The notes under the pieces are model-generated. The model saw nothing but the letters and a program-made list of their open reading frames with translations. It made no database searches and had not been told where the DNA came from. Shown piece by piece: positions 56,208-61,260 of a DNA stretch of 64,000 nucleotides. Positions within the stretch are counted from its first letter, which is position 1. Every line of letters begins with the position of its first letter. Source of the DNA: Actinomycetota bacterium. Its GTDB lineage: Bacteria; Actinomycetota; Acidimicrobiia; Acidimicrobiales; Ilumatobacteraceae. The DNA lies in contig WLIV01000005.1 of the NCBI GenBank assembly GCA_009702045.1, positions 62,001-126,000 on the forward strand, written 5' to 3'. The translations under genes were made by a program, and so were the position numbers.

Positions 56208-56405
56208 ATGAAGGTCCTGCTGCGCAACCCCAAACGCGAACTCGTCATCGACGGGAAGCGCTCGGTGAACGCGTTACTGACACAACTCGACCTGCCACGC
56301 GAGTCGCACCTCGTCATCTGTAATGGAACCCTCGTACCGGGTGATGCTGATCTGACTGACGACGACGTCGTTGAAATCCGACCCGTGATCTCAGGCGGCG
56401 CCTGA
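56208..56405 (+). CDS. ttuB: TtuB-like ubiquitin-fold sulfur carrier
   Basis: 65 residues of the ThiS/MoaD beta-grasp fold. MKVLLRNPKRELVIDGKRSVNALLTQLDL and VPGDADLTDDDVVEIRPVISGG match TtuB of Thermus, which carries a C-terminal thiocarboxylate to TtuA for 2-thiolation of ribothymidine 54 in tRNA. The assignment rests on the gene fusion-like overlap with ttuA (shared A of TGATG) and the ISGG ending. Here one extra alanine follows the Gly-Gly, so processing would be needed before activation. ATG 56208 follows GGAGGGAACG. Confidence 0.82.
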   Translation: MKVLLRNPKRELVIDGKRSVNALLTQLDLPRESHLVICNGTLVPGDADLTDDDVVEIRPVISGGA

Positions 56406-57370
56406 TGGTCGCCGTCGGATCGAAGTGTCGTACGTGCAAGGCCCCAGCGATCATCGACCTCCCGCGTCACAACGCCCACTTCTGTGCCGAGCACTTCCTG
56501 GAACTCTGTCGTCGCCAGGTGGTGAAGGCGATCGAGAAGTTCGACATGCTCAGCAAGGACGACCGGGTGCTTGTCGCGGTCTCCGGCGGCAAGGACAGCC
56601 TCGCAGTCTGGGACATGCTGATCGAGCTGGGATACCAAGCTGATGGTCTGTACCTCGGCCTCGGGATCGGCGACTACAGCGACACGTCCGCTGTGTACGC
56701 CCGCAACTTCGCGGCCGAACGGGGGTTGCACCTCATTGAAGTCTCGCTGCGCGCCGACTACGGCTACGACGTGCCCACTGCTTCCAGGGCCACCAAGCGC
56801 GTGCCCTGCAGCGCCTGCGGAATCAGTAAGCGACACCTGTTCGACAGCGAGGCGCTGAAAGGCGGCTACACGGTGTTGGTCACTGGCCACAACCTCGACG
56901 ACGAGGCGGCGGTGCTGTTCGGCAACACGCTGCGATGGGACGTCGAGTACTTGGCCCGTCAAGCACCGGTGTTACCTGCCCGCAATGGCTTTCCGAAGAA
57001 GGTCAAGCCACTCGTTCGGCTCACCGAGCGCGAAATGGCTGCGTGGTGCATCGTGCGTGGTATCGACTACCTCGTCGAGGAATGTCCGATGGCCGTCGGC
57101 AACAAGCACCTCGCGTACAAAGCCGCGCTGAACGAGATCGAACGTCAGTCGCCCGGTAGCAAAGCCGCGTTCTACTTGAACTTCCTCGACAACATGGCGC
57201 CGCTCCTCACTGGAATCACGGCCGCGGCCACGGACTCCTTGCAGGAGTGCACCTCCTGCGGTGCGCCCACCACGGGCGACATGTGCGCGTTCTGTCGCTT
57301 GGCGGAGAAGGCCAGCGCACATGAACCCGTACCGGTGGAACTGGTAATTGGAAAAGGACGCAAACGATGA
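56405..57370 (+). CDS. ttuA: tRNA-5-methyluridine(54) 2-sulfurtransferase TtuA
   Basis: 321 residues. The N-terminal zinc site is CRTCKAPAIIDLPRHNAHFCAEH. The PP-loop VAVSGGKDSLAVWDML (residues 57-72) activates the uridine. Three cysteines at positions of the TtuA iron-sulfur cluster are present: C135 and C138 (PCSACG) and C227 (EECPMAVGNKHLAYK). GHNLDDEAAVLFGN follows the fold, and the C-terminal zinc site is CTSCGAPTTGDMCAFC. It should make 2-thioribothymidine at position 54. TtcA (s2C32) is a close relative, but the double zinc sites and the neighbouring ttuB and trmI favour TtuA. Confidence 0.9.
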   Translation: MVAVGSKCRTCKAPAIIDLPRHNAHFCAEHFLELCRRQVVKAIEKFDMLSKDDRVLVAVSGGKDSLAVWDMLIELGYQADGLYLGLGIGDYSDTSAVYARNFAAERGLHLIEVSLRADYGYDVPTASRATKRVPCSACGISKRHLFDSEALKGGYTVLVTGHNLDDEAAVLFGNTLRWDVEYLARQAPVLPARNGFPKKVKPLVRLTEREMAAWCIVRGIDYLVEECPMAVGNKHLAYKAALNEIERQSPGSKAAFYLNFLDNMAPLLTGITAAATDSLQECTSCGAPTTGDMCAFCRLAEKASAHEPVPVELVIGKGRKR

Positions 57371-58137
57371 ACCGACCGTTCGCATACGGCGACAAGGTGC
57401 TGCTGCTCGACAACAAGCAGCGTCGCTACCTGATCACGCTCACAGAGGGCGCCGAGTTCCACACCCACACCGGGTTGGTGCCGCACGCCGACATGGCCGA
57501 GCGGCCCGAAGGAACCGTCTTCAAGAGCACCAAGAACGCGTCATACACCGCGCTGCGGCCCACGCTGGAAGACTTCGTGCTGGAGATGCCCCGCGGCGCG
57601 CAGGTGATCTACCCAAAGGATCTGGCGCCGATCTGCATGCTGGCCGACATCGGCCCCGGTGTGCGCGTGTTCGAGAGTGGCCTCGGGTCGGGTGCACTCA
57701 GCATGACGATGTTGCGCTACGGCGCAGAGATCGTTGGCTACGAGATCCGTGAAGACTTCCTCAACCGGGCGAAGGCCAACGTGCGCACGTTCCTTGGCGA
57801 GGGCGTGATGGACCGTTACGACGCCCGCTTGGCGGACGCATACGCCGGTATCGCCGAACGCGATCTCGACCGTGTGGTGCTCGATCTTCCCGAACCGTGG
57901 CAGGTCGTGCCGCATGCGATGGAGGCACTGCGGCCCGGGGGCATCCTGCTGGCCTACACACCGTCGATCACCCAGGCGGTACAGACCCGCGAGGCGATGG
58001 CAACCCGCGCGTGGAGCGGCACGCGCACGCTGGAAGTGTTGCACCGCGGTTGGTACATCGAGGGTCAGGCTGTGCGTCCCGACCACCGCATGGTGGCGCA
58101 CACAGCGTTCCTCACCGTCGGACGCTTCCTCGGCTGA
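57367..58137 (+). CDS. trmI: tRNA (adenine-58-N1)-methyltransferase TrmI
   Basis: 256 residues. The N-terminal beta-domain (GDKVLLLDNKQRRYLITLTEGAEFHTHTGLVPHADM) and QVIYPKDLAPICMLADIGPGVRVFESGLGSGALSMTMLRYG with the SAM site are characteristic, as are LDLPEPWQVVPHAMEALRPGGILLAYTPSITQ and RPDHRMVAHTAFLTVGR. It makes m1A58, the partner of T54 in the T-loop. In Thermus m1A58 promotes s2T54 formation, so the ttuB-ttuA-trmI order is functional. ATG 57367 overlaps the ttuA stop. Actinobacteria often have trmI near arc. Confidence 0.95.
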   Translation: MNRPFAYGDKVLLLDNKQRRYLITLTEGAEFHTHTGLVPHADMAERPEGTVFKSTKNASYTALRPTLEDFVLEMPRGAQVIYPKDLAPICMLADIGPGVRVFESGLGSGALSMTMLRYGAEIVGYEIREDFLNRAKANVRTFLGEGVMDRYDARLADAYAGIAERDLDRVVLDLPEPWQVVPHAMEALRPGGILLAYTPSITQAVQTREAMATRAWSGTRTLEVLHRGWYIEGQAVRPDHRMVAHTAFLTVGRFLG

Positions 58138-58205: not shown

Positions 58206-58451
58206 CTAGGGCTCGATGAAGATGCATTCGCCGGGGCATTCCTCGGCGCTCTCGATGACCGCATCGAGGCGGTTGTCGGGGATGTCGGCCATGCCGTCGG
58301 CTCCCTGAGCGTTGCCCTTGGCGGTGGCGTACACCGTGTCGCCCTGCTTGACGTAGGCAAGGCCATCGTCGAGCAGTGTGAAGACGTCGGGCGCGATCTC
58401 TTCGCAAAGGCCATCGCCGGTGCACAGGTCCTGGTCGATCCACACCTTCAT
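58206..58451 (-). CDS. Ferredoxin, [3Fe-4S] type
   Basis: 81 residues. MKVWIDQDLCTGDGLCEEIAPDVFTLLDDGLAYVK and AEECPGECIFIE carry the ligand cysteines (CTGDGLC, then CPGEC), with a 25-residue insert between. It donates single electrons, typically to cytochrome P450s or other oxidases; no partner is adjacent. It is on the strand opposite its proteasome neighbours. Confidence 0.9.
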   Translation of the reverse strand: MKVWIDQDLCTGDGLCEEIAPDVFTLLDDGLAYVKQGDTVYATAKGNAQGADGMADIPDNRLDAVIESAEECPGECIFIEP

Positions 58452-60307: not shown

Positions 60308-61180
60308 TCAGTGTCGTTCCCGCGATGCAGGCTGGTAGTTGGTACCGGCGGTGATGTCGACTTGGTGCAACAGCGTCGCACATGGTGGCTCGAACAGTTC
60401 GGCGAACCGCACGCTTGCTGCCTCGCCGAGTAGTTCCCACGGCAGGGTGGTGAGGCGGTCGGTGTCGTCCTCGAGACGCTGCCGCAACGCGATTCCATCG
60501 GAAGTCACTTGTCCGTCGGCCACCAGACCCTTCTTCGCGAGCGACGCCCAGCCCTGCTGCAGATCGTCGGGGGTAGTGCCCCTCGACTTGGCCAGCCAAT
60601 CGGGCTCGTACCCCAGCCAGGCGTTGTGCAGGATCGAGGCTTCGGGGTGCGTGAGCCCTGCGGCGACGACAAGTGCCCAGTGCGTGTCGCCGCGCCATTC
60701 GCGCAGGCAGTTCACCGCGTGCCAACCGGACATCACCGGGTCGGGGGAGCGCGGCATCGCCAGATGGGCACCGAAGAACACTCGACCGACGCAGGGGAGA
60801 CGTTCGACCACCGGCCACAGCAGCTCGCCGTACTCGGCGAGCGGGTCGATGAGTTCAGGCACGTGAGTGCGCAGTCCCTCAGTCACGGCTGCATCACGGG
60901 CGTCCCAGAAGTCGCGGAACCGTTCGGGCGACCCCATCAGTGTGAACGCGCCTTCGATGCCAACACGGCTGATCGATCCGAACGCCGCGATCACCGCGTT
61001 CGGACCGGCTCCGGCCAACGGTGCGCTGCGCGAGGCGATGTAACCGAGTGGCCCGGCAAATCCGTCGGGGAGGCCCATGAGCCGGTAGCGCTCGACCGCA
61101 CCAGGATCCCAGAAGATCCAGCCGATCGTTGTCTGCACGCTGCGTGCGTTGCGCCGGGTGATCTCCAACCAATCGGTCAT
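60308..61180 (-). CDS. SCO6745-like helix-turn-helix protein
   Basis: About 290 residues. The N-terminus (RRNARSVQTTIGWIFWDPGAVERYRLMGLPDGFAGPLGYIASRSAPLAGAGPNAVIAAFGSIS) matches the SCO6745 family of actinobacteria, whose C-terminal part is a winged-helix-like fold (GWASLAKKGLVADGQVTSDGIALRQRLEDDTDRLT). The biochemical role is unknown. ATG 61180 is chosen over the extended frame, which would run through palindrome copy F. It sits between arc and dop on the opposite strand. Confidence 0.8.
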   Translation of the reverse strand: MTDWLEITRRNARSVQTTIGWIFWDPGAVERYRLMGLPDGFAGPLGYIASRSAPLAGAGPNAVIAAFGSISRVGIEGAFTLMGSPERFRDFWDARDAAVTEGLRTHVPELIDPLAEYGELLWPVVERLPCVGRVFFGAHLAMPRSPDPVMSGWHAVNCLREWRGDTHWALVVAAGLTHPEASILHNAWLGYEPDWLAKSRGTTPDDLQQGWASLAKKGLVADGQVTSDGIALRQRLEDDTDRLTTLPWELLGEAASVRFAELFEPPCATLLHQVDITAGTNYQPASRERH

Positions 61181-61217
61181 TCCGCGAGTCTGCCCCACCC
61201 GCCCCGTCCCACACCGC

Positions 61218-61260
61218 GTTTGAAGCCTCACCCGCACTGCGTGCGGTTTCGGCTTCAAAC
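61218..61260. repeat. 43-base palindromic element, copy F
   Basis: GTTTGAAGCCTCACCCGCAC, loop TGC, GTGCGGTTTCGGCTTCAAAC. It is paired at 17 of 20 positions; the outer GTTTGAAGCC/GGCTTCAAAC is a compensating version of the other copies. It ends 33 bases before the dop start and is flanked by C-rich DNA on the left and GGGGTGGCGGG on the right. Confidence 0.92.

What the first reader, a model, noticed from the sequence alone, without database searches (positions are those of the whole stretch)
56208..58137. TtuB-TtuA-TrmI module for T-loop thiolation beside the Pup-proteasome locus
TtuB (ubiquitin-like), TtuA (with its three cluster cysteines and two zinc sites) and TrmI (m1A58) overlap stop-to-start. 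In Thermus m1A58 promotes 2-thiolation of T54, giving thermal stability to tRNA. Nothing else in the window indicates a thermophile, so s2T54 would have a different meaning here. TtuB can also conjugate to proteins in Thermus, so two ubiquitin-like systems may be encoded within 7 kb.
Basis: partly seen in the sequence, partly recalled or inferred. Interest (0 to 1): 0.78.

Follow-up and report, generated by a model that had tools for sequence, protein, structure and literature searches.

The report
Capped ubiquitin-like sulfur carrier for tRNA
A bacterium whose nearest known relatives live in fens and lakes carries the genes that heat-loving bacteria use to harden their tRNAs with sulfur, but its ubiquitin-like sulfur carrier ends in an extra residue that probably has to be cut off first, and many members of a related class make the carrier fused to the enzyme it feeds, much as eukaryotes make ubiquitin.

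Summary
In detail: ttuB, ttuA and trmI overlap at 56208-58137, with TtuA's catalytic and metal residues, beside a Pup-proteasome locus. The reading is partly right. TtuA is in 85 of 198 genomes of the class, next to ttuB and trmI wherever the contig allows. Nearness to the Pup genes is Actinomycetota synteny (0 of 34 loci in other phyla).

In 67 of 84 class genomes TtuB is capped, with Ala or Ser after GG in 60 of 67. In a related class (Nitriliruptoria by record titles), 40 of 66 genomes encode TtuB and TtuA as one frame, with GG then Ala (36) or Ser (4) and no ATG, GTG or TTG in the linker. This points to processing at GG|A/S. The likely peptidase is JAMM; the genome has one with an intact motif, and a rhodanese-E1 enzyme.

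The product may be s2U54 rather than s2T54: no TrmFO over cut-off in 198 genomes, and 6 of 30 TtuA genomes show no clear m5U methylase. The JAMM link is a raw association that a tree-based test could not confirm. No chemistry was tested.

The parts
56208..56405 (+). ttuB-like ubiquitin-fold sulfur carrier, 65 aa, capped C-terminus SGG-A
   Evidence: capped state compared
56394..56402 (+). codons G63 G64 | A65: proposed processing site (cut after G64)
   Evidence: read; P1' pattern
56405..57370 (+). ttuA, [4Fe-4S] PP-loop tRNA-U54 2-sulfurtransferase
57367..58137 (+). trmI, tRNA m1A58 methyltransferase
   Evidence: PF08704, PF14801
58206..58451 (-). single-cluster ferredoxin between trmI and ARC on the other strand (neighbour; link to TtuA only conjectured)
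   Evidence: PF13459 65.4 bits
58574..60307 (+). ARC/Mpa proteasomal ATPase (neighbour by synteny)
   Evidence: TIGR03689 742.1 bits
61294..62790 (+). Dop depupylase (neighbour)
   Evidence: TIGR03688 546.1 bits
62829..63023 (+). Pup, ends GGE (neighbour)
   Evidence: TIGR03687 69 bits
63001..63819 (+). PrcB proteasome beta subunit (neighbour)
   Evidence: TIGR03690 300.4 bits (scanned from 63049)

Best explanation
The three genes make a T-loop tRNA modification module. TrmI methylates A58; TtuA 2-thiolates U54 using sulfur carried as a thiocarboxylate on TtuB. TtuB is made as an inactive, capped precursor (GG-Ala). A peptidase, most likely the genome's JAMM (Mec/desampylase-like) enzyme, removes the Ala to free the di-glycine; the rhodanese-E1 fusion protein then adenylates and thiocarboxylates it; TtuA's [4Fe-4S] site takes the sulfur to U54, helped by m1A58. 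In the related class (Nitriliruptoria) the same maturation step would separate a TtuB-TtuA polyprotein. Shown here: the genes, residues, cap, conserved GG|A/S junction, fusions, and presence of E1 and JAMM. Inferred: the cut, the peptidase, the sulfur flow, and the product (s2U54 or s2T54).
For: Family and residue evidence. Gene order. Cap: 67 of 84 TtuBs; A/S at P1' in 60 of 67. On the TtuA tree, P1' needs 24 changes and P2' 54 over 78 tails, while the G, G and S before the cut need none. Fusion: in the class of G200, 46 of 66 genomes match; 40 have TtuB and TtuA in one frame, P1' A 36 / S 4, no ATG/GTG/TTG before the first TtuA cysteine. Predicted fold of one fusion: mean pLDDT 92.1 with a dip to 67 at residues 61-70, the GG|AG linker; the TtuA part matches 5ztb/5gha, best E 2.7e-35. 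JAMM with HSHx7SxxD motif in G000. N-terminal rhodanese plus ThiF E1. Precedents, passages seen: PMC6006322 (capped sulfur carriers typically need a protease; JAMM mutant loses the thioacid product in Streptomyces), PMC8832034 (DRJAMM cuts MoaD-MoaE), PMC3980101 (Thermus JAMM mutant: aberrant TtuB conjugates, about 50% less thiouridine), PMC6418473 (m1A58 speeds TtuA).
Against: JAMM is in 99 of 104 genera of the class, with or without TtuA (79 of 85 TtuA genomes, 65 of 113 others), so co-occurrence says little there. Outside the class, capped or fused TtuB goes with JAMM (19 of 23 against 9 of 21 GG-ending; Fisher p 0.011), but the independent-pairs test is inconclusive (11 pairs, JAMM differs in about 2). 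Five of 40 fusion genomes and four capped class genomes show no strong JAMM; the class ones are 70-90% complete, completeness of the others is not told. MoaD- and CysO-like caps in these genomes often do not begin with A or S (FR, R, WRP..; one AGPATS), so one JAMM with a strict A/S preference is too simple. Outside Actinomycetota some TtuB caps begin with R. TtuA can use free sulfide in vitro (PMC11323500, passage), so TtuB may not be essential.
Confidence: 0.68

Rival explanations
1. The cap is removed by a general carboxypeptidase or another peptidase, not JAMM; the extra residues are a harmless by-product of the ttuB/ttuA stop-start overlap.
For: Two-residue tails often sit in ATGA/GTGA overlaps, so tail length is partly set by translational coupling. 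Some capped genomes show no JAMM.
Against: The overlap does not constrain P1', yet P1' is A/S in 60 of 67 and changes less than P2' (24 against 54). The fusions need an endopeptidase, which a carboxypeptidase cannot supply.
Confidence: 0.17
2. TtuA works mainly with free sulfide here, and TtuB (capped or fused) is a structural or regulatory partner or a protein modifier, not the sulfur donor.
For: T. thermophilus TtuA uses sulfide in vitro (PMC11323500, passage). Nine loci in other phyla with room carry ttuA with no ttuB match in the locus. G062 keeps TtuA and TtuB but shows neither E1 nor JAMM.
Against: SGG is invariant over 78 capped TtuBs and at all 40 fusion junctions; ttuB lies beside ttuA in 82 of 82 class loci with room.
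Confidence: 0.1
3. The enzyme thiolates another tRNA position (U34, NcsA-like).
For: TtuA and NcsA share architecture and Fe-S site (ranks NcsA next after the TtuA entries).
Against: MnmA matches in 40 of 40 genomes searched (38 over cut-off; G000 over); TtuA beats NcsA by 150 bits; TrmI, the m1A58 enzyme, is next door in 77 of 77.
Confidence: 0.04
4. TtuB tagging and pupylation are functionally coupled, e.g. TtuB conjugates are proteasome substrates.
For: ARC lies downstream in 10 of 12 Acidimicrobiia and 5 of 5 other Actinomycetota named loci with room. TtuB does conjugate to TtuA and TtuC in Thermus (PMC3980101, passage).
Against: 0 of 34 in other phyla; inherited order alone explains it; JAMM and E1 lie on other contigs.
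Confidence: 0.04

Closest known systems
TtuA/TtuB/TtuC/TtuD s2T54 pathway of Thermus thermophilus
   Same: TtuA fold and catalytic and metal residues; ThiS-family carrier; E1-like enzyme; rhodanese; TrmI; a JAMM in the genome
   Different: TtuB capped (GG-A) here, while the chain of 5ztb_E ends at the GG; E1 and rhodanese are one protein, rhodanese first; no TrmFO over cut-off; nearest named relatives are from fen and lake samples
Capped sulfur carriers with a JAMM protease (PtmS1/PtmS2 of Streptomyces platensis, QbsD of the thioquinolobactin pathway; HcyS/HcyD recalled)
   Same: One or two residues after GG and a JAMM in the genome
MoaD-MoaE fusion cut by DRJAMM (Deinococcus radiodurans)
   Same: Ubiquitin-fold carrier fused by its GG to the enzyme it feeds
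   Different: Fusion partner is a tRNA thiolase; found in 40 of 66 genomes of a class; cleavage not yet shown; not seen in the window's own class
Ubiquitin-ribosomal protein fusions and polyubiquitin (recalled)
   Same: Precursor with GG followed by a fused protein or cap
   Different: No relation of the peptidases is implied; a sulfur carrier, not a degradation tag

Membership tests
TtuA (tRNA-5-methyluridine54 2-sulfurtransferase) | PP-loop SGGKDS, three Fe-S cysteines, active-site Lys and Asp | tested here: met
   S60 D64 C135 C138 K142 D166 C227, invariant in 16 of 16 aligned
TtuA (tRNA-5-methyluridine54 2-sulfurtransferase) | two zinc sites | tested here: met
   (PF22082 41.9 bits, cut-off 27); C8 C11 C27 H30 and C282 C285 C294 C297 (H30 is Cys in some relatives)
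TtuA (tRNA-5-methyluridine54 2-sulfurtransferase) | NCBIfam NF049949 equivalog cut-off; Pfam PP-loop cut-off | tested here: inconclusive
   best family by far (258.6 bits) but under the cut-off of 450 of a Pyrococcus-named model; PF01171 26.4 bits, cut-off 27
TtuA (tRNA-5-methyluridine54 2-sulfurtransferase) | thiolates position 54 | not testable with these tools
   needs tRNA mass spectrometry
TtuB as known in Thermus | ThiS-family beta-grasp domain | tested here: met
   PF02597 34.1 bits, cut-off 22.5
TtuB as known in Thermus | free C-terminal di-glycine as encoded | tested here: not met
   ends SGG-A; 67 of 84 class TtuBs capped. Filed as a capped TtuB-like carrier
TrmI | GCD14 domain and TrmI-like N-terminal domain | tested here: met
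   PF08704 84.4 bits, PF14801 62 bits
JAMM/MPN+ peptidase | PF14464 and H[ST]Hx7SxxD motif | tested here: met
   (73.9 bits)
JAMM/MPN+ peptidase | cuts TtuB after GG | not testable with these tools
   needs purified proteins
s2T54 pathway | m5U54 methylase TrmFO | tested here: not met
   0 of 198 over cut-off; 25 have short matches, nearly all to the first residues of the model (at most 8 candidates per genome scored); one RumA-type enzyme in G000
Pup-proteasome locus | ARC, Dop, Pup, PrcB | tested here: met
   all over curated cut-offs

The most novel reading that the evidence does not exclude
Bacterial tRNA thiolation is run from a ubiquitin-style precursor: capped TtuB, or a TtuB-TtuA polyprotein, that is silent until a deubiquitinase-like JAMM peptidase cuts after GG. 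The peptidase would then both start the sulfur relay and undo TtuB conjugates, a switch for T-loop 2-thiolation in non-thermophiles, whose product is s2U54 without the methyl group.
Probability: 0.4. Interest if true: 0.78.

Novelty: new variant of a known kind. Interest (0 to 1): 0.6.

Why it matters
2-thiolation of the T-loop is usually described as a heat adaptation. Here its genes are a syntenic block across a class whose members found here come largely from lakes, fens, soils and sludge by record title, so its role must be wider. The capped carrier and the TtuB-TtuA fusion of a related class would place a ubiquitin-like maturation step at the head of a tRNA modification pathway. They give a simple assay (one protein, one cut) for what JAMM peptidases do outside the ubiquitin system.

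Tried and rejected
TtuB as a stand-in for a missing CysO: the JAMM gene of G000 ends 31 bases before a cysM-like gene with no cysO between, but a CysO-like carrier ending in GG lies elsewhere (G000:C5), so the idea was dropped. A U34 function was rejected because MnmA is present. JAMM-cap co-evolution: raw Fisher p 0.011 on 44 genomes and 0.0004 on 162 rows, but the tree-based pairs test has too few informative pairs; not claimed.

Rows dropped: one search was given 50 of the 58 loci L189-L246 (left out: L196, L215, L220, L227, L234, L237, L242, L243). One search used 44 of those 50; six had no TtuB match (L206, L207, L210, L219, L244, L246). L232, which ends SGGGG, was counted as capped. JAMM yes/no used E <= 1e-10 there, and phylum labels were read by hand from record titles. 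One search covers 84 of 85 TtuA genomes (G111 was not fetched). The 40 genomes were picked by hand (30 with TtuA, 10 without). Some rows are one genome under two ids; identical rows add no changes. In one search the ttuB count for other phyla (37 of 46) includes L234, whose ttuB match is 540 bases off; the strict count is 36 of 46. The first structure job (8 rows) was poor for TtuA; the second (66 rows) is used. tRNA T-loops were not pursued: one tRNA in the window.

Full report
Observation. The window holds ttuB (56208-56405), ttuA (56405-57370) and trmI (57367-58137) on the + strand, overlapping by one and four bases. TtuA's best solved relatives are T. thermophilus TtuA (E 9e-88) and Pyrococcus TtuA (2.6e-71); NcsA is far weaker (3e-22). 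The catalytic and metal residues are there. TrmI has both its domains. ARC, Dop, Pup and PrcB follow.

How common. TtuA was found in 85 of 198 genomes of the class, 60 of 104 genera, and in 84 of 396 of the phylum (this includes a group at about 33-36% identity that I guess may be another TtuA/NcsA branch). Of class loci with enough contig, ttuB lies within 156 bases in 82 of 82 and trmI is adjacent in 77 of 77. Among the 80 named loci, in phyla other than Actinomycetota ttuB is within 500 bases in 36 of 46 loci with room and trmI adjacent in 7 of 48. ARC lies downstream in 10 of 12 Acidimicrobiia and 5 of 5 other Actinomycetota loci with at least 4.5 kb of room, and in 0 of 34 of other phyla. 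So the module is TtuB-TtuA-TrmI, and the Pup neighbourhood is synteny seen here only in Actinomycetota.

The cap. The window's TtuB ends PVISGG-A-stop. [quoted passage not shown] Among 84 of the 85 TtuA genomes, 17 TtuBs end at GG and 67 carry a tail, most often of two residues (44). The first tail residue is Ala in 43 and Ser in 17 of 67; in the two-residue tails the second is varied. On a FastTree of TtuA, over 78 tails of two or more residues, P1' needs 24 changes, P2' 54, and the G, G and S before the cut none; cap against no cap needs 11 changes in the class. Tail length is partly set by the ATGA/GTGA overlap with ttuA, but that does not constrain P1'.

The fusion. In five named loci (three titled Nitriliruptoria or a group of it, two only Actinomycetota) TtuB and TtuA are in one frame. 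A search of the class of one of them found TtuA in 46 of 66 genomes. Of these, 40 are fused, three are separate (G268, G269, G272: tails SHG, SHG, AA), and three are unresolved at contig ends (G263, G265, G304). In the 40 fusions the junction is SGG followed by Ala (36) or Ser (4), then 4-8 residues in 39 (G260 has a longer altered stretch) before the first zinc-finger CxxC. None has ATG, GTG or TTG in that linker (four have CTG), so TtuA cannot start there by a common codon with its zinc site intact. At least three of them (G250, G284, G290) lie on megabase contigs, which speaks against assembly error. No fusion was seen in the window's own class. The predicted fold of one fusion has mean pLDDT 92.1, with internal dips only at residues 61-70 (67; the GG|AG linker) and 331-340 (71); its TtuA part matches the Thermus TtuA of the TtuA-TtuB complex.

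Partners in the genome. G000 has one strong E1, an N-terminal rhodanese joined to ThiF/MoeB, so TtuC- and TtuD-like parts are one protein. It has three ThiS-family carriers: TtuB, a CysO-like one ending GG and a MoaD-like one ending GG-FR. It has one JAMM with the full motif, nearest in the PDB to 2kcq (E 2e-15) and more distantly to PfJAMM1 (1e-8), next to a cysM-like gene. MnmA is complete.

Which peptidase. At 95% completeness or more, 42 of 42 capped class genomes have JAMM; of 11 uncapped ones, 10 do. But JAMM is in 99 of 104 genera of the class. Four less complete capped genomes and five of 40 fusion genomes show none. Outside the class 19 of 23 capped or fused against 9 of 21 GG-ending genomes have a strong JAMM (Fisher p 0.011). 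With relatedness taken into account there are 11 independent pairs and JAMM differs in about two, so nothing can be concluded. The choice of JAMM therefore rests on precedent (passages seen in each): capped carriers with a JAMM in Streptomyces (PMC6006322), DRJAMM cutting a MoaD-MoaE fusion (PMC8832034), the suggestion by Iyer et al. that JAB domains cut ThiS/MoaD fusions (PMC1779556), and a Thermus JAMM mutant with abnormal TtuB conjugates and half the thiouridine (PMC3980101).

Which product. TrmFO is over cut-off in 0 of 198 genomes, while 7 of 14 control genomes are over it (at most 8 candidates scored per genome). PF05958 finds nothing in G000. A RumA-type enzyme is in G000 (195.9 bits) and in 24 of 30 TtuA genomes; six (G145, G193, G196, G010, G012, G048; 95-100% complete) show only weak methylase matches, as do three of the ten TtuA-less genomes. 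RumA-like enzymes make m5U54 in archaea, and methylation and thiolation of U54 are independent in Thermus (PMC6418473, passages); Sulfolobus has s2U54 with no TrmA gene found (PMC7912444, passage). So s2U54 is expected in those six and is open in G000.

Temperature. Growth temperature was not measured, and the class has heat-tolerant members too (L176 is titled Ferrithrix thermotolerans).

In print, as far as searched: no title or abstract start listed tells of a TtuB-TtuA fusion, a capped TtuB or TtuA in Acidimicrobiia. Listings were cut and most subscription papers are not held.

Verdict. A known kind of system in an unexpected lineage, with a new maturation step strongly suggested by sequence and not yet shown at the bench.

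Noticed in passing
window 58206-58451 (-); class loci: A single-cluster ferredoxin gene lies between trmI and ARC on the opposite strand in 38 of 40 class-sample loci and 11 of 12 named Acidimicrobiia loci that show both genes, and in none of 7 other Actinomycetota loci.
   Followed up: partly
L144 (G000:C20:32823-33044), L153, L157, L162: Other sulfur carriers are capped too: MoaD-like GG-FR in G000; CysO-like GG-R, GG-AGPATS, GG-WRPDHHEH in relatives.
   Followed up: partly
L037 6830-8231: JAMM and cysM-like genes are adjacent in G000 without a cysO between them, while several other families have a CysO-like carrier beside JAMM.
   Followed up: partly
L073 (G048), L067 (G076), L189: TtuB tails of 55-120 residues: one ends in a second copy of the TtuB C-terminus (EIRPVISGG-ARP), two hold repeats.
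   Followed up: no
G062: A 95% complete genome with TtuA and GG-ending TtuB but no JAMM and no ThiF-type E1 match.
   Followed up: no
L206, L207, L219, L220, L227, L242, L243, L244, L246: Nine loci of other phyla, among them Nitrospira, carry ttuA with no ttuB match in the fetched stretch.
   Followed up: no
window 60308-61258 (-): An HTH_67-family gene (221.6 bits) sits between ARC and Dop on the opposite strand.
   Followed up: no
G323, G421, G473 and relatives: A TtuA-like group at about 30-36% identity in other Actinomycetota; G473 has two copies (41% and 30%).
   Followed up: no
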